Origin: an uncultured eubacterium 1-6
GTDB taxonomy: Bacteria > Bacillota > Clostridia > Lachnospirales > Lachnospiraceae
Direction: 5' to 3'
Length of the DNA stretch: 57,922 nucleotides
NCBI GenBank assembly: GCA_903789595.1
Contig: CAIFEZ010000021.1
Span: 1 to 57,922, forward strand
Numbering within the stretch: position 1 is the stretch's first letter; each line of letters begins with the position of its first letter. Of the stretch, positions 47,553 through 53,114 are shown piece by piece. Position numbers and translations under genes: made by a program. The notes under the pieces were generated by a model. It was not told the DNA's origin. It saw only the letters and a program-made list of their open reading frames with translations, and did not search any database.

Positions 47553-47783
47553 TTACAGCTGCTTCCGGATGGTTGCCATGATCTGCGCGGCGGATTCGAA
47601 GTTTTCCGGGATGATGTCCTCCAGGGGAATCTGAACGTCGAAGGCGTCGTTGATCTCCTGGATTAACAGCATCATATCAAAGGATTTCAGCACGCCTCCG
47701 GAAATCAGATCGGTTCTTGTGAAATCCTCTCCGGGTTTGATCTCATCTAAAATATTCATAAGTTTGTCCATTGATTGATCCAT
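47553..47783 (-). CDS. acyl carrier protein of a dlt-like cassette (DltC-like)
   Basis: The 76-residue acidic helical protein has a carrier-protein pattern, with the phosphopantetheine serine most likely in GGVLKSFDMMLLIQEI. The residue before that serine is lysine, whereas carrier proteins nearly always have aspartate (DS). GAFDVQIPLEDI-like sequence (here DAFDVQIPLEDI) follows, as in ordinary carriers. It is the last gene of the leftward operon, downstream of the adenylating enzyme, and would carry the activated acid on its pantetheine arm. AGAAAAGGAGAAAA precedes the ATG. Confidence 0.82.
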   Translation of the reverse strand: MDQSMDKLMNILDEIKPGEDFTRTDLISGGVLKSFDMMLLIQEINDAFDVQIPLEDIIPENFESAAQIMATIRKQL

Positions 47784-47804
47784 CTTTATTTTCTCCTTTT
47801 CTAT

Positions 47805-47926
47805 GCGGCAGATCTTATCTCAGAGATCTGCCGGTCTTTTTCCAGGCGGCGGATCCTTCATCAGAGATCTGCCGTTTTTTCCAGGCGGCGGGTCTTATCT
47901 CAGAGATCTGCCGCTCTTTTTTTCAG
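47805..47926 (-). repeat. triplicated 3' end of the DltA-like gene, about 40-bp units
   Basis: Three tandem units of 41, 39 and 42 bp contain TCAGAGATCTGCCG with flanking T-runs and CCAGGCGGCG. The first on the minus strand (47885-47926) includes the last codons and the stop of the adenylating enzyme gene (stop at 47900); the other two repeat that end in the gap before the carrier gene. Each unit can fold through CGGCAGATCTC with a partner such as GATCTGCCG. Confidence 0.85.
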
Positions 47927-49417
47927 CTCCGCGCGGTCGATTTTGCCGTTCAGATTATGGGGCATGGAGTCCAGGCGGACGCGGCGCCCCGGGATCATGT
48001 AGGCGGGCAGCATCTTTTTCAGTTCTTCGCTGAGGAAGGATTCTTCCGCCTGTCCGGTGTAAAAGAGGACGATCCTTTTCCTGACCTCGTTGTATACGCA
48101 GCAGTTTTCCTCGACACCCTTTACGGCGGAGACATTTGCCTCGATGTCGCCCAGCTCGATCCGCTGTCCCATGTATTTGATCTGAAAATCCTTTCGGCCG
48201 ATGAAGATCAGTTCTCCGCGTTCATTATACTGCACGAGATCTCCCGTGTGGTAGATTTTTTCCTCGTAACAGGAGTTCAGGGGATTCTGTGTAAATACAC
48301 GGTCTGTCAGTTCGGGGTTTCTGTAATAGCCGTAGGTGAGGGAGTTGCTCCTGACGCAGAGCTCTCCGGCACCGTCTTCGCTTCGTGTGACTCTTCGGCC
48401 GTTCTCATCGAGAACCATGAAATCATAGTTGCGGAAGGGTTTTCCGATCGGGAGTTTGGCATTTTCCGGGAATTCGCGGTCAATGAAGAAGTAAGAGCCG
48501 CCGTCCGTGGTTTCCGTGGGGCCGTACTGGTTGATAAAAACGGCCTGCGGAAGGGCTTCTCTCCACATGTTCAGCTGCTTGATCGGCATGATTTCTCCTC
48601 CGAACATGACCATCCGGACGGAGGAGAGGTCGGAGAGCTTCAGGGCCTTGAGGTTTGCCAGAACGACCAGCTCGGAGGGCACCCAGTACAGGACGGTGAC
48701 TTTCTGTTCTGCCAGGAACCGCATCAGGAGAGCGGGGAAGGAAAAATACAGGCACGGAATGATGCAGGTAGTGCTTCCGTTTCGAAGGGTGGAATAGACG
48801 TCCAGCAGAGACATGACGAAATACAGAGGAGCTTCATTGCCCATGACGTCCTTGTCCGTGAAATGGAAGACATCGGTTGCCGCGTCCACATAATCCACTA
48901 CCGCGCGGTGCGGCGTGACGACGCCCTTTGCCGTTCCGGTGGATCCTGAGGTGAAGAGGACATACAGGACATCGGTGGGAAGGATTCTGTTCATGACGGA
49001 CAGAATTTCTTCTTCGTTAAATGCGGATTCCTGCGCATCCTCGTAGATGAGAACGGATGCATCGCCGCTTATGGCGTCAACAGCATCCTTGTGCGTCCGG
49101 TCGGTGAGAATTACGGCCGGCTCGAGAACGCTGAGGATGTGGCGGATTCTGGTCTCAGGCATTTGTGTGTCGAGAATGGTGTAGAAGTTTCCGCTGTAGG
49201 CGATTCCGAGCATCGCGGGGATGCATTCCACGCTTTTCTCCAGGTAGACGGCCACCGGCATCTTGAAGAGTTGACGGCGTACCAGAGAGCCGGCGATATG
49301 CAGCGCTTCCTGTCTCGTCTCCGAGAAGGTAAGGGTGCGGTCCTTGTCAATGTATGCGGCCTTGTCAGGATATTTTTTTACTGTTTCCTCCAGATATTCC
49401 ATTACAAGTTTTGCCAT
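47900..49417 (-). CDS. DltA-like amino acid adenylation domain protein, altered substrate pocket
   Basis: The 505-residue ANL enzyme would activate a carboxylic acid with ATP and load it on the carrier protein. Core motifs are intact: LFTSGSTGTAKGV, YGPTETT, YHTGD, GRKDFQIKYMGQRIEL and NGKIDR with the late lysine. It aligns without gaps to DltA through the pocket (APLYFVMSLLDVYS against APFSFDLSVMDLYP). The aspartate that binds the amino group is Val201, and the D-alanine pocket cysteine (FMFCGE in DltA) is Gly273. A non-amino acid, or a bulkier acid, is therefore inferred. GGAGGT precedes the ATG. Confidence 0.88.
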   Translation of the reverse strand: MAKLVMEYLEETVKKYPDKAAYIDKDRTLTFSETRQEALHIAGSLVRRQLFKMPVAVYLEKSVECIPAMLGIAYSGNFYTILDTQMPETRIRHILSVLEPAVILTDRTHKDAVDAISGDASVLIYEDAQESAFNEEEILSVMNRILPTDVLYVLFTSGSTGTAKGVVTPHRAVVDYVDAATDVFHFTDKDVMGNEAPLYFVMSLLDVYSTLRNGSTTCIIPCLYFSFPALLMRFLAEQKVTVLYWVPSELVVLANLKALKLSDLSSVRMVMFGGEIMPIKQLNMWREALPQAVFINQYGPTETTDGGSYFFIDREFPENAKLPIGKPFRNYDFMVLDENGRRVTRSEDGAGELCVRSNSLTYGYYRNPELTDRVFTQNPLNSCYEEKIYHTGDLVQYNERGELIFIGRKDFQIKYMGQRIELGDIEANVSAVKGVEENCCVYNEVRKRIVLFYTGQAEESFLSEELKKMLPAYMIPGRRVRLDSMPHNLNGKIDRAELKKRAADL

Positions 49418-49447
49418 GTGTGATTTACCTCCATGGATATACGCCTG

Positions 49448-49526
49448 CGCGGGCTGTCAGCATGTGCGGGCTGTCGGCATGTGCGGGCTGTCAGTATGTG
49501 CAAACTGTCAGCATGTGCGGGCTCTC
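49448..49526. repeat. 17-bp tandem repeat, about 4.6 units
   Basis: Units CGCGGGCTGTCAGCATG, TGCGGGCTGTCGGCATG, TGCGGGCTGTCAGTATG, TGCAAACTGTCAGCATG and a partial fifth run without gaps. They lie between the DltD-like and DltA-like genes, inside the operon, just upstream of the ribosome binding site of the latter. The period equals that of the unrelated array at 40940. Confidence 0.9.
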
Positions 49527-49575
49527 AAAACGATTGCCACATCCGGCAGCCGCTCATGCAGTGCGTGCACGGGCG

Positions 49576-50556
49576 TTATGATTTGGTTTCGAACAGCATG
49601 CTGCCGAGAAGTGCTGAGAATTGTTCGGCGCTGTCTCCGTTCATGTGTCCGTCATAATCTACGAAGCAGGATACATCGTGAGAAAAGCTGTCGTAGTATT
49701 CGCGGTTGAAGTTGTAATATTCCACGCCGTTTTTCTGCATAAAGCTCCCAATGTAGTCCCAGGCGGCCTCATAGTTTTCGGGGAAGGATACCAGGGAACG
49801 GTCTGGCTGCGGAAGCGTGGTTGTCACGAGCCGTATATCGTTCTCACTGCACAGGTGAATGATCTTTCTGAGGTAGGAGATGTTGTCTTTCTTCACCTGA
49901 TCTTTTTCGAAGAGCACCGGATTCCATCCCGGAAAATTTTCCTCCGCGACGGGATAACGCTCGATGAAGCCGTCTTCATGGTAGACCATATTGGAGGTGC
50001 TGAACTGGCCGGCGCTGTAGTCACCTGAGAGCTTCGTGCGCAGATTTGACGGAATTCGCGGGAGCATGCTCTTCAGAGGATATTCATAGGAAGGAAACAG
50101 AAGAGCCCGGAAGTCACTCTGAGGCATAATCGCTGTGCAGTAGCTGAGTTTTGCTGCGGAAAAAGGAAATTCATGATAGAAGAGAAGGTAGTTGTTGCCT
50201 TTTTCCTTTTCGGTGACGAGATATCCGGGATCCACATCCAGTATGACGGTGGAGGGATGTCCCTTCTCGAGCGCCAGCTTCAGCAGGTAATAGGAGTCGC
50301 ACAGATACTCGCCGCCGTTTGCGAGGTTGCGGCCCGTCTGTCCGGTTCCCTTGAGCATGGTTTTCGGGTCAATGCCCATGCGCGAGTTTGATGTGCCGAG
50401 AATAATGACGTCATCAGGCTCTGTCGTCAGGGCGTGAATGTCGCTGCGGACGTAGGTGCATGGATACAGCATCAGGTCGAGAAGCAGGAGGATGACAGCG
50501 GCAGCCGCCACGCAGCCTGCAAATTTCAATGTCGGAAAAATTTTAGTATTGCGCAT
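49576..50556 (-). CDS. DltD-like membrane-anchored SGNH-type protein
   Basis: The 326-residue protein has one N-terminal membrane segment (about 10-32) and an extracytoplasmic domain. Residues near 52 read VIILGTSNSRMGIDP, a GxSxS-like nucleophile region, and near 300 SCFVDYDGHMNGDSA supplies the D-x-x-H pair of SGNH and DltD-like proteins. DltD helps transfer D-alanine in wall teichoic systems; here it probably acts in acyl transfer outside the membrane. It is shorter than DltD (about 390-420). The start overlaps the acyltransferase stop by 14 bases, so the two are coupled. Confidence 0.75.
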   Translation of the reverse strand: MRNTKIFPTLKFAGCVAAAAVILLLLDLMLYPCTYVRSDIHALTTEPDDVIILGTSNSRMGIDPKTMLKGTGQTGRNLANGGEYLCDSYYLLKLALEKGHPSTVILDVDPGYLVTEKEKGNNYLLFYHEFPFSAAKLSYCTAIMPQSDFRALLFPSYEYPLKSMLPRIPSNLRTKLSGDYSAGQFSTSNMVYHEDGFIERYPVAEENFPGWNPVLFEKDQVKKDNISYLRKIIHLCSENDIRLVTTTLPQPDRSLVSFPENYEAAWDYIGSFMQKNGVEYYNFNREYYDSFSHDVSCFVDYDGHMNGDSAEQFSALLGSMLFETKS

Positions 50557-52069
50557 AGATGAACCCTCTTTCTGCCGCCATCGGTGAGAGCAGGGCAGTG
50601 ACTGCCAGCAGGGCGGTAAAGATCAGAACCTGTACGAGAACCGGGCACCGTGAGAGACTCTCCCGAATCCGGATGCCCCGCTCCTGCAGAAGACTGACAA
50701 GAAACAGCAGGGCAATGCCGGCTCCCAGAATGGCAAGTGCTGTCGGTGTGTATGCGGTTCCCAGACGGCCGGCGGCGATGGAGAGGAACTGAGAAGGATG
50801 CAGCCGGGTGAAGCTGTATCGGATCACCTTCAGTGCCTCCCCGAAGTTTGCAGTCGTGTCAAAAAGCCAGCCGATGTTGACGAGAAGGAAGGTCCGGAGA
50901 ATCATGAAAATCTTCCACGGAAGCGACTCTCCGTTGATATGCAGGGCGGCTTTCCATTTCCGGAAGGAGCCGGCGAGCAGGTTGCTGGCCGCGATGATGA
51001 TGCCGTTGTACAGACCCCAGCCGATGTTGTTCAGGGCGGCTCCGTGCCAGAGACCGACGAGGAAGAAAACGATGATGCTGGAGATGCACATGGGAATCAG
51101 GAGTCCGGTCCTTTTGCCGAAGCGTTTTCGCGCGCCTTTTCCGATCTTTGCCATCCATCGGGAGAGGGTCAGCGGATACATGACATAATCGCGCATCCAT
51201 GTTCCGAGGGTGATGTGCCAGCGGCGCCAGAAATCGGAAAGAGAGACGGAAAAGTACGGCCGGCGGAAATTTTCGTCCAGATGGATTCCGAAGAGCTCGG
51301 ATATGCCGAGGACGAAATCGATGCCGCCCGAGAAGCTTCCGTACAGCTCAACGGAGTACAGGAGAACGATGAAAAGAGCGATTCCCGAGAACTGATCGAT
51401 GTCGGCGCAGATGGCTTTGCGGTAAAGGCCGGCCCATCCTGCGAGGAGCATGCTTTTGAAAAGTCCCCAGACAATCCGCATGAGGCCGAACCGAAGGTTC
51501 CGGAAGCGGAATTCATGACCCTCGGTCAGCTGGGGCATCAGGGTCTTGTATCGTCCGATGGGTCCCTGAACCAGCTGGGGGAAAAAGGAAACGAAGAGCG
51601 CAAAATGGAGAAAATTTTTCTCCGCGTCGGTTCGCTTCCAGTATACGTCCAGAATGTAGCTCACGGTCTGGAAGGTGTAGTAGGAGATTCCGAGAGGAAG
51701 GAGAAGACCCTTCAGCGTATAATCTCCGTGGAGGATCTGACCGGCAATTCCCAGAATATCGTTTGTGTATTTCAGGATGGCAAGCATGGCGAAATCAAGC
51801 ACCATGCCGAGAATGACGATCTGCCGGGCTCTCCGGCGGGATTCTGTGCGGTCCGTGCAGGTGTCATAGACCCGGCCGATCATAAGGCCGGTCAGGTAGG
51901 TGACAGCAGTGGAATAGACCAGACACAGGAAGGCAGGAATACCATAGGAGAGATAGAAGGCGCAGCTTGCTGCCAGAAGCACAATCCAGCGCCGCTTGAG
52001 CGGCGCCAGATAGTAGCAGACAAGACAGACTGCCAGAAAGAGAAAAAACAGATTGGAAGTCAGTGACAT
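50543..52069 (-). CDS. MBOAT family O-acyltransferase (DltB/AlgI-like)
   Basis: The 508-residue membrane protein has about 11 hydrophobic segments. It shows the MBOAT signature SLSDFWRRWHITLGTWMRDYV and the catalytic histidine in VGLWHGAALNNIGWGLYNG. The DFWRRWH form is closer to AlgI/PatA polysaccharide O-acyltransferases than to some DltB proteins. It would take the acid from the carrier protein inside and pass it across the membrane. GGGGGAG lies four bases before the ATG. It begins 10 bases after the lipoprotein gene, in one operon with the DltD-like gene. Confidence 0.92.
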   Translation of the reverse strand: MSLTSNLFFLFLAVCLVCYYLAPLKRRWIVLLAASCAFYLSYGIPAFLCLVYSTAVTYLTGLMIGRVYDTCTDRTESRRRARQIVILGMVLDFAMLAILKYTNDILGIAGQILHGDYTLKGLLLPLGISYYTFQTVSYILDVYWKRTDAEKNFLHFALFVSFFPQLVQGPIGRYKTLMPQLTEGHEFRFRNLRFGLMRIVWGLFKSMLLAGWAGLYRKAICADIDQFSGIALFIVLLYSVELYGSFSGGIDFVLGISELFGIHLDENFRRPYFSVSLSDFWRRWHITLGTWMRDYVMYPLTLSRWMAKIGKGARKRFGKRTGLLIPMCISSIIVFFLVGLWHGAALNNIGWGLYNGIIIAASNLLAGSFRKWKAALHINGESLPWKIFMILRTFLLVNIGWLFDTTANFGEALKVIRYSFTRLHPSQFLSIAAGRLGTAYTPTALAILGAGIALLFLVSLLQERGIRIRESLSRCPVLVQVLIFTALLAVTALLSPMAAERGFIYAQY

Positions 52070-52079
52070 GGTCTCCCCC

Positions 52080-53030
52080 TTACCAGGTGAGGCCGTTGTC
52101 GATGCAGCCCTCGCCTGAATCAGCGCCCTGATCGGTGTTGACCGGAGCGGGTGTCTCGGCTGCCTGTCCTGCTCCGGAGTCTGTGGTATCCGGTGTGGAA
52201 GGCTCCGTGTAGGTGGCGGAAGGGTCGGTATAGGTTTCGGACGGAGCCGTGTAGGTGTCAGACGGAGCGGTGTAGGTGCTTTCCGCAGGCTGTTCTGCCG
52301 CGGACTGTTCTGCCTGCTGCGTCTCGGCCGCAGGCTGCTCGGTCGGCGCCTGCGTAGGAGTCGGAGTCGCCTGGGATGCTTCCAGAACGGCCTTTTCCGA
52401 ATCCTCCGTGCTGATCGTCTCTCCGGTTGAAGAAGAAACGTACTTCAGGAACAGGAAGGAATTTTCCGTGTTCAGCAGGATGGATGCACTCTTGATATCG
52501 TTCAGGGGAACGGAATGAAGCTCCAGGGTGGTCTGATCATCGAAGGTCAGCTGAATGGAATAATCGGGATTGACGACTGGAGCGGAATCGGATTCGGTCT
52601 GTGCATTTACAGATTTCAGAGCTTCCGACTCATCATAGTAAAGCGTGCGGGTTTCGCCGGCTTCATAGGTTTCGCCGGAGGGGATCATATTGTCTCCGTA
52701 GGATTCCTGACCCGTGTATTTCACGGCGAAGCCGGTAACTGCCTTTCCGGTTTCGTTGGTCAGCTCCATCCGGACGATATTCGTGCCTTCCGCTTTTGTT
52801 CCGATGATTTTCTCGGCCTCTTTTTCAACAGAGGAAGCGGAGAGTGCGCTTACGGAGGCGGAAGCTACTGCCTCCGTTGCGGCAGGCGTCTCCGTTACCG
52901 AAGAAAGGGCCACCGACTCCGAAGACGCGGCTTTTCCGCAGCCCCCGAGGAGCAGGGCAGAGCCGGTCATTACGGCGATAAGAGCGGTGAGCGGGATTTT
53001 TGTGAAGCTGTGCTGGATGTTGTTTTTCAT
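52080..53030 (-). CDS. lipoprotein with Thr/Tyr/Pro/Ser repeat tail
   Basis: The 316-residue protein starts at 53030 with a lipoprotein signal (MKNNIQHSFTKIPLTALIAV, then LLLGGC, Cys about 31), after CAGGAG. Residues 75-215 form an unrecognised beta-rich domain (IVRMELTNETGKAVTGFAVKY, ASILLNTENSFLFLKYV). The tail (220-316) is low complexity with four TYTxPS blocks, a likely wall-spanning linker. It is 10 bases upstream of the acyltransferase, so it may present or hold the modified polymer. No family was recognised. Confidence 0.7.
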   Translation of the reverse strand: MKNNIQHSFTKIPLTALIAVMTGSALLLGGCGKAASSESVALSSVTETPAATEAVASASVSALSASSVEKEAEKIIGTKAEGTNIVRMELTNETGKAVTGFAVKYTGQESYGDNMIPSGETYEAGETRTLYYDESEALKSVNAQTESDSAPVVNPDYSIQLTFDDQTTLELHSVPLNDIKSASILLNTENSFLFLKYVSSSTGETISTEDSEKAVLEASQATPTPTQAPTEQPAAETQQAEQSAAEQPAESTYTAPSDTYTAPSETYTDPSATYTEPSTPDTTDSGAGQAAETPAPVNTDQGADSGEGCIDNGLTW

Positions 53031-53114
53031 AATATGTATTCTCCTGATAATGATGTGGTAATGATTCAGCAACCCGATCCCGAGAACCTGCGGTTCCCGG
53101 GATGCGAGGGTTCG

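What the first reader, a model, noticed from the sequence alone, without database searches (positions are those of the whole stretch)
47553..52069. Dlt-like acylation cassette whose adenylation domain has lost the amino-group aspartate
MBOAT, DltD-like, DltA-like and carrier genes lie in one leftward operon, as in D-alanylation of teichoic acids. The pocket aligns gaplessly with DltA (APLYFVMSLLDVYS against APFSFDLSVMDLYP), and the aspartate that grips the amino group in DltA and NRPS A domains is Val201 (codon 48815-48817). The DltA pocket cysteine (MFCGE) is Gly273 (codon 48599-48601). ATP motifs and the late Lys are intact. In NRPS domains the same Asp loss marks alpha-keto, hydroxy or aryl acid substrates. 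I infer a wall or polysaccharide O-acylation system using a different acid.
Basis: partly seen in the sequence, partly recalled or inferred. Interest (0 to 1): 0.78.

Follow-up and report, generated by a model that had tools for sequence, protein, structure and literature searches.

The report
Dlt-like loader with rebuilt substrate pocket
A clostridial bacterium carries a gene cassette built like the machine that decorates Gram-positive walls with D-alanine, but the enzyme that chooses what gets attached has a consistently rebuilt pocket, so it probably attaches a different small acid.

Summary
A leftward cassette encodes an MBOAT, an SGNH protein with a DltD-like fold, an adenylation enzyme and a carrier. 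The aspartate that grips the amino group is Val201 and the DltA pocket cysteine is Gly273, at the stated codons; catalytic motifs are intact and selection is purifying (dN/dS about 0.05). It is no lone lost residue. Met at 236 and Tyr at 277 also track the loss. Two groups show it, and the tree keeps them apart (AU p 0.026, test chosen after a first tree). The enzyme is not DltA: the cassette fails the DltA, DltB and DltC cut-offs, and 0 of 41 related genomes has a DltA over the cut-off. I infer Dlt-like surface acylation with a small acid lacking a canonical alpha-amine, probably bearing a hydroxyl or amine further out that Asp305 binds. Alpha-keto or aryl substrates are less supported. Substrate and acceptor are unproven. 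New variant of a known kind.

The parts
50543..52069 (-). MBOAT (DltB-like) membrane O-acyltransferase, 508 aa; His342 in VGLWHG (codon 51044-51046), the catalytic-type His (role recalled)
   Evidence: PF03062 54.4 bits; TIGR04091 DltB 151.9 bits, below cut-off 375; 30% identity over 262 aa to the MBOAT protein beside canonical DltA in L160, WHG aligned
49576..50556 (-). SGNH-fold protein with an N-terminal hydrophobic helix in the DltD position, 326 aa; Ser56 in GTSNS and His304 invariant in an alignment of 44 sequences, window included
   Evidence: no Pfam family; invariant columns (numbers there are one less); Foldseek E 2.5e-05 to DltD 3bma, TM 0.45
47900..49417 (-). free-standing adenylation enzyme, 505 aa, pocket code VMLWMGQDGK
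   Evidence: PF00501 242.5 bits; TIGR01734 DltA 264.6 bits, below 559.85; codes
48815..48817 (-). Val201 codon, at the amino-group aspartate position (GrsA 235, DltA 197)
48812..48814 (-). Met202 codon (position 236): Met in 15 of 16 Asp-less V/I+S members and 0 of 129 with the Asp
48686..48688 (-). Tyr244 codon (position 277): Tyr in 15 of 16 Asp-less V/I+S members and 2 of 129 with the Asp
48599..48601 (-). Gly273 codon (position 301, the DltA cysteine)
48503..48505 (-). Asp305 codon (position 330, Val in canonical DltA L160): pocket Asp
   Evidence: 16 of 17 Asp235-less and 9 of 129 Asp235-bearing relatives
47553..47783 (-). carrier protein, 76 aa; phosphopantetheine-type Ser34 (47682-47684), preceded by Lys instead of the usual Asp
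   Evidence: PF00550 18 bits; NF003464 DltC 30 bits, below 68; alignment
52080..53072 (-). lipoprotein-like gene next to the MBOAT gene (start uncertain); related gene in L118, L119, L120 and L194, no match found in L117
   Evidence: 27-72% identity
53209..55050 (-). secreted ChW-repeat, transglutaminase-like protein; a relative lies upstream of the cassette in the five relatives with the same chassis (L117, L118, L119, L120, L194; L118 with ricin-type repeats instead of ChW, L120 only a cut end)
   Evidence: PF07538, PF01841

Best explanation
The cassette works like Dlt. The adenylation enzyme activates a small carboxylic acid with ATP and loads it on the carrier protein; the MBOAT moves the acyl group across the membrane and, with the SGNH protein, esterifies a surface polymer or glycoprotein. 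The loader no longer selects a canonical alpha-amino acid. I infer a small acid with no alpha-amine but with a hydroxyl or amine further along the chain (3- or 4-hydroxybutyrate type, or beta-alanine/GABA type), bound from the opposite wall by Asp305. Shown: gene order, intact catalytic motifs, the coordinated pocket change, purifying selection, Asp loss in two groups. Inferred: the order of steps (by homology to Dlt), substrate and acceptor.
For: Of the 505 window positions, the three that best separate the 16 Asp-less V/I+S members from the 129 Asp-bearing relatives are 236 (Met 15/16 v 0/129), 330 (Asp 16/16 v 9/129) and 277 (Tyr 15/16 v 2/129); two are standard pocket positions, the third is next to Trp278 (rows counted singly, kinship not corrected). 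With pocket columns masked, the V/I clade has 100/100 support and one clade of V/I plus S is rejected, p-AU 0.026. VinN has Lys at 330 and Arg at 331, the key residues of its pocket loop (PMC11253843, passages), so a side chain at 330 can matter for the substrate. Three of 7 V/I members have a Na+/solute symporter gene in the operon (L099, L190) or upstream of it (L117), fitting an imported substrate. An S-code loader (L102) sits with a carrier in a sialic-acid-type (NeuB, NeuC, cytidylyltransferase) sugar locus, next to a protein that is 40% identical to one beside L165, the V/I sister with an alanine-like code, in a locus of the same type: this fits one sugar acylation served by loaders of different specificity. 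Gram-negative surface sugars carry N-3-hydroxybutyryl and 4-hydroxybutyryl groups, one on a nonulosonic acid (PMC3210612, passages). L194 has the window's chassis (MBOAT 55%, SGNH 48%) with an S-code loader, so V/I and S loaders feed related transfer machines. dN/dS about 0.05.
Against: No substrate is shown. Published beta-amino-acid enzymes keep Asp235 and have a pocket loop one residue shorter, neither true here. Asp330 also occurs with Asp235 in 9 relatives (DNLW/DNLF codes), so it is no simple replacement. L115 lacks Asp235 without Asp330. No symporter lies near the window's cassette: the best match in the own genome is 28% identical on another contig. The symporters score best against the general SSS model and VC_2705, then PutP and PanF, with acetate/monocarboxylate models weaker, all below cut-offs, so their solute is unknown. 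The protein shared by L102 and L201 has no Pfam or NCBIfam hit; 'N-acyltransferase' is by eye. That Asp305 faces the substrate is by alignment only. The AU test was run after a first tree had been seen, p is moderate, L124 falls outside the S clade in the masked tree, and the V/I+L165 join is 81/92 there (99/98 with all columns).
Confidence: 0.5

Rival explanations
1. The loader activates an alpha-keto or alpha-hydroxy acid (lactate, pyruvate or branched-chain type), as the first reader argued from NRPS rules; the cassette makes alpha-hydroxyacyl or ketoacyl esters.
For: A small or aliphatic residue at 235 is the published mark of hydroxy- and keto-acid A domains (passages). V/I codes match PksJ, PyrG-A2 and AulA-A2 at 3-6 of 10 positions, best L164 v PyrG-A2 at 6; window 4.
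Against: Pro of GPTE is kept in 6 of 7 V/I members, window included (L099 has Ser), whereas the solved keto-acid domain needs Met at a conserved Pro. No ketoreductase domain in the adenylation protein. The five published keto codes seen have Ser at 330, not Asp. S-code members match the three codes at only 1-3 of 10.
Confidence: 0.25
2. It still activates an alpha-amino acid, possibly D-Ala or Gly: Asp305 has taken over the amine from the other side, so only recognition changed.
For: Position 330 is Val in canonical DltA, by alignment Val301 of the B. cereus enzyme, listed as coordinating the alpha-amino group (PMC11253843, passages), so an Asp there could reach the amine; 16 of 17 Asp235-less relatives have it. 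The nearest Asp-bearing relative, L165, has an alanine-like code DLLWMCMCAK.
Against: The amine floor becomes Val/Ile (or Ser), and 236, 277 and 301 differ as well, more than a swap needs. The nine DNLW/DNLF relatives with Asp330 carry both Asp residues.
Confidence: 0.17
3. The loader is degenerate, or loads a plain short-chain acyl group (acetate, butyrate) as in ordinary polysaccharide O-acylation.
For: Loss of Asp removes the usual class filter; the carrier Ser is preceded by Lys in the window.
Against: dN/dS about 0.05 and intact ATP and Lys motifs; an acidic pocket residue is unexpected for a plain acyl chain (inference); carrier Ser kept.
Confidence: 0.08

Closest known systems
DltABCD teichoic acid D-alanylation
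   Same: Same four activities: free-standing A domain, carrier, MBOAT, SGNH protein with DltD-like fold
   Different: Below curated cut-offs for DltA, DltB and DltC; pocket differs from L160 at 9 of 10 positions, no Asp235, no Cys301; MBOAT 508 aa against 394 aa in L160
Clostridial Dlt-like cassettes with DVKW, DSKW, DAKW, DNLW and SMxW codes (groups named here by their codes)
   Same: Nearest relatives; many have an A domain, carrier, MBOAT and SGNH side by side
   Different: 129 of 146 aligned relatives, two canonical DltA-type references included, keep Asp235; DVKW members have a PLP decarboxylase beside the loader in 67 of 70, none was found beside V/I members
alpha-keto/alpha-hydroxy acid NRPS A domains (PksJ, PyrG-A2, AulA-A2, StsA)
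   Same: Aliphatic residue or Gly at 235; up to 6 of 10 code positions in V/I members
   Different: Free-standing enzyme in a Dlt-like cassette; GPTE Pro kept in 6 of 7; Asp at 330; no ketoreductase domain
VinN/IdnL1/HitB beta-amino-acid adenylation enzymes
   Same: Free-standing loader for a separate carrier; similar fold (HitB)
   Different: They keep Asp235 and have a shorter pocket loop

Membership tests
DltABCD D-alanylation system | DltA equivalog TIGR01734, cut-off 559.85 bits | tested here: not met
   264.6 bits
DltABCD D-alanylation system | D-Ala pocket: Asp197, Leu198, Cys269 | tested here: not met
   Val201, Met202, Gly273; residue roles from PMC11253843, passages
DltABCD D-alanylation system | DltB equivalog TIGR04091, cut-off 375 bits | tested here: not met
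   151.9 bits; MBOAT family itself met
DltABCD D-alanylation system | DltC equivalog (NF003464 cut-off 68; TIGR01688 cut-off 52.35) | tested here: not met
   30 and 18.4 bits; carrier Ser present
DltABCD D-alanylation system | DltD | tested here: inconclusive
   no DltD hit in Pfam or NCBIfam at E 0.01; fold match to DltD structures E 2.5e-05, TM 0.45, among other SGNH hydrolases
DltABCD D-alanylation system | D-alanyl esters on teichoic acid | not testable with these tools
   needs chemistry
alpha-keto acid A domain | aliphatic residue instead of Asp235 | tested here: met
   Val201
alpha-keto acid A domain | conserved Pro (read here as that of GPTE) replaced, Met in StsA | tested here: not met
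   Pro300 kept; 6 of 7 V/I members have Pro, L099 Ser
alpha-keto acid A domain | ketoreductase domain in the same protein | tested here: not met
   505-aa protein; AMP-binding was the only Pfam hit at E 0.01
beta-amino-acid adenylation enzyme (VinN type) | Asp235 kept and pocket loop one residue shorter | tested here: not met
   Val201; IdnL1 and HitB align with a one-residue gap just after the GxTE motif, the window does not

The most novel reading that the evidence does not exclude
Clostridia hold a radiation of Dlt-like surface acylation systems with different, fixed loader codes, and two of its branches separately gave up alpha-amino acids by the same pocket remodelling (Asp235 lost; Met236, Tyr277 and Asp330 present). 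They then esterify cell-surface polymers with hydroxy acids or beta/gamma-amino acids, with loaders and transfer chassis swapped between systems.
Probability: 0.4. Interest if true: 0.78.

Novelty: new variant of a known kind. Interest (0 to 1): 0.6.

Why it matters
D-alanylation is the textbook Gram-positive wall modification and sets surface charge and resistance to cationic peptides (recalled). Of 41 genomes searched around the window's, none had a DltA over the curated cut-off, yet 47 of 100 family genomes hold an adenylation relative at E up to 1e-60, many of them in Dlt-like cassettes where I looked; annotation as 'D-alanine ligase' would mislead. If the loader uses another acid, some clostridia decorate their surface with an unknown ester, and the remodelling seen in two groups gives a rule (Asp235 lost, Asp330 present) that one exchange assay can test.

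Tried and rejected
VinN-type beta-amino logic: rejected as membership (Asp235 absent, loop length), kept as a functional analogy. Betaine-type substrate: considered from recall; the nematode ATRR paper (PMC11050029, passages) did not print the code in what I saw, so not tested. Paper searches for a beta-alanine/GABA code and for nonulosonate loaders gave nothing usable. Three searches with Dlt and MBOAT terms listed no title or abstract describing such cassettes; the listed papers were not opened, and the library is open-access only. Symporter solute: not resolved. Geometry of Asp305: no coordinates were given. Thioesterase count by adjacency missed the one in L099, which lies beyond the 1500-base limit. 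In that call the V/I row counts 5, before L164 was found and without the window; the final count is 7. Promoter and terminator scans were near chance (6 v 4.4 and 11 v 7.9 expected), so operon ends are not set.

Dropped or limited: code counts use proteins over 330 aa (under 700 aa in later rounds, which drops L061), duplicates removed; L118 lacks its last position because the contig ends. The 146 include the two DltA-type references L160 and L161. Relatives were those ranked best by searches from the window or its clade, so class sizes are not frequencies. The tree used 6 drawn rows each of DVKW, DSKW and DAKW of 72, 20 and 16; one search used 4 each and 3 of 8 'other' rows. Loci L106, L107 and L199 were fetched but their gene lists not read; L123 was read for its code only. 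Alignments A1 and A2 dropped Met1 of the window proteins (wrong end trimmed), so numbers printed there are one less. SGNH dN/dS: 0.071 and 0.115 in two pairs, not computable in the third.
Full report
What is there. On the minus strand lie four genes in one direction: MBOAT (50543-52069), SGNH protein (49576-50556), adenylation enzyme (47900-49417) and carrier (47553-47783). Pfam and NCBIfam find MBOAT, AMP-binding and a weak carrier match, all below the curated Dlt cut-offs: DltA 264.6 of 559.85 bits, DltB 151.9 of 375, DltC 30 of 68. The SGNH protein has no Pfam family, but its model (mean pLDDT 78) matches DltD structures among other SGNH hydrolases. The adenylation model (mean pLDDT 89.8) matches NRPS A domains and DltA alike. 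Upstream and in the same direction lie a lipoprotein-like gene (by eye) and a ChW/transglutaminase-like secreted protein.

The pocket. Against the LgrA A domains and a canonical DltA fetched as L160 (701 bits), the window code at the ten standard positions is VMLWMGQDGK against DLMSLCTVAK.

Is it chance? Two genomes at 88-89% identity share the code, and dN/dS between them and the window is 0.05 for the adenylation enzyme, 0.06-0.08 for the MBOAT and 0.03-0.04 for the carrier (dS is above 1, so these are rough). I aligned 146 distinct relatives: 17 lack Asp235. Seven form a V/I clade (window, L120, L119, L117, L118, L099, L164), nine an S group (L124, L006, L100, L101, L128, L102, L170, L183, L186), one is L115. 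Of the 17, 16 have Asp330; of 129 with Asp235, 9 have it, all with DNLW or DNLF codes. Scanning all window positions, the three that best mark the 16 V/I+S members are 236, 330 and 277. With the pocket columns masked, V/I is one clade at 100/100, next to L165 (code DLLWMCMCAK, alanine-like; 81/92) and DNLW members (83/71), while 8 of 9 S members form another clade (98/87) and L124 is unplaced; holding V/I and S together is rejected at p-AU 0.026, a test chosen after the first tree. The full-column tree agrees on V/I and joins it to L165 at 99/98. So a coordinated remodelling probably happened at least twice.

Distribution. In the genus, 5 of 16 genomes have a V/I member: the own genome and those of L120, L119, L117 and L118. 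Among 397 family genomes 3 scored over 700 bits with the V/I profile, own, G091 and G739, all three V/I; the next, 694 bits, has a DNLW code. Several genomes are incomplete. None of 41 genomes, the own included, has a DltA over the cut-off, against B. subtilis and L. lactis in the controls; at phylum level 1 of 149. The own genome has a second Dlt-like operon on another contig with code DVKWMSLCNK and a PLP decarboxylase gene.

Neighbours. In V/I members L099 and L190 (the wider stretch of L164) a sodium/solute symporter gene lies between loader and carrier; in L117 it lies upstream of the MBOAT gene. L099 also has a thioesterase gene (PF00975). The other four show none in the sequence held, two of them on short contigs. 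L194 has an S-code loader on the window's chassis (MBOAT 55%, SGNH 48%, related lipoprotein-like and ChW proteins), while L099 and L190 have V/I loaders on a remoter chassis (MBOAT 34-36%): loader and chassis seem to reassort. L102 (S code) and L165 (alanine-like code) lie in loci with NeuB, NeuC and cytidylyltransferase genes, each beside one of a pair of proteins 40% identical to each other that have no Pfam or NCBIfam hit and look like N-acyltransferases by eye; there the loaded acyl group probably goes on a sugar amine (inference).

Mechanism. By homology to Dlt (established for Dlt, inferred here): ATP activation, carrier loading, MBOAT transfer across the membrane, SGNH-assisted esterification. 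For the substrate: the hydrophobic floor at 235 speaks against a canonical alpha-amine; the Asp at 330 speaks against a plain acyl or keto acid, since nothing there would need it; Trp278 suggests a small acid. I therefore favour an acid with a hydroxyl or amine beyond the alpha carbon. Keto-acid readings gain from code similarity (3-6 of 10) but lose on the kept GPTE Pro and the published Ser330. An alpha-amino acid held by Asp305 is not excluded.

Verdict. Works like Dlt, is not a member of the DltABCD family by tested features. New variant of a known kind. Literature seen, all by passages: three reviews on A domains, three primary papers and one glycan review; everything else only in search listings. 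Three searches listed nothing that describes such a cassette.

Noticed in passing
own genome contig C1, L098:9690-15266: Second Dlt-like operon: DVKW-code loader, PLP decarboxylase of the DapDC/ODC type, carrier, MBOAT, SGNH. Across relatives the DVKW loader has this decarboxylase within 1500 bases in 67 of 70 loci, which suggests an acidic amino acid that is decarboxylated before or after loading; a separate and, among the loci fetched, commoner system than the one reported.
   Followed up: partly
window 47797-47921: Tandem array of 3.1 copies of a 41-base unit between carrier and loader genes, running into the loader's 3' end, with hairpins followed by T runs on the + strand.
   Followed up: no
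window 49449-49527: Tandem array of 4.6 copies of a 17-base unit in the spacer between the loader and SGNH genes.
   Followed up: no
window 47682-47687: The carrier Ser is preceded by Lys in the window, L119 and L120, by Glu in L117 and L118, by Asn in L190 and by Asp in L099.
   Followed up: partly
L119:2974-12466: In a close relative the cassette is flanked on both sides by ChW-repeat transglutaminase-like secreted proteins, which may point to the acceptor.
   Followed up: partly
L103:7783-10449 and L197:8101-10621: DNLW-code loaders with a carrier and an AAC(3)-like N-acyltransferase (PF02522) in loci with NeuB genes: a possible acyl-carrier route to N-acylated sugars.
   Followed up: partly
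L115 (G102:C93): A loader with code IARWISQASK that lacks Asp235 and Asp330 but has the PLP decarboxylase next to it.
   Followed up: no
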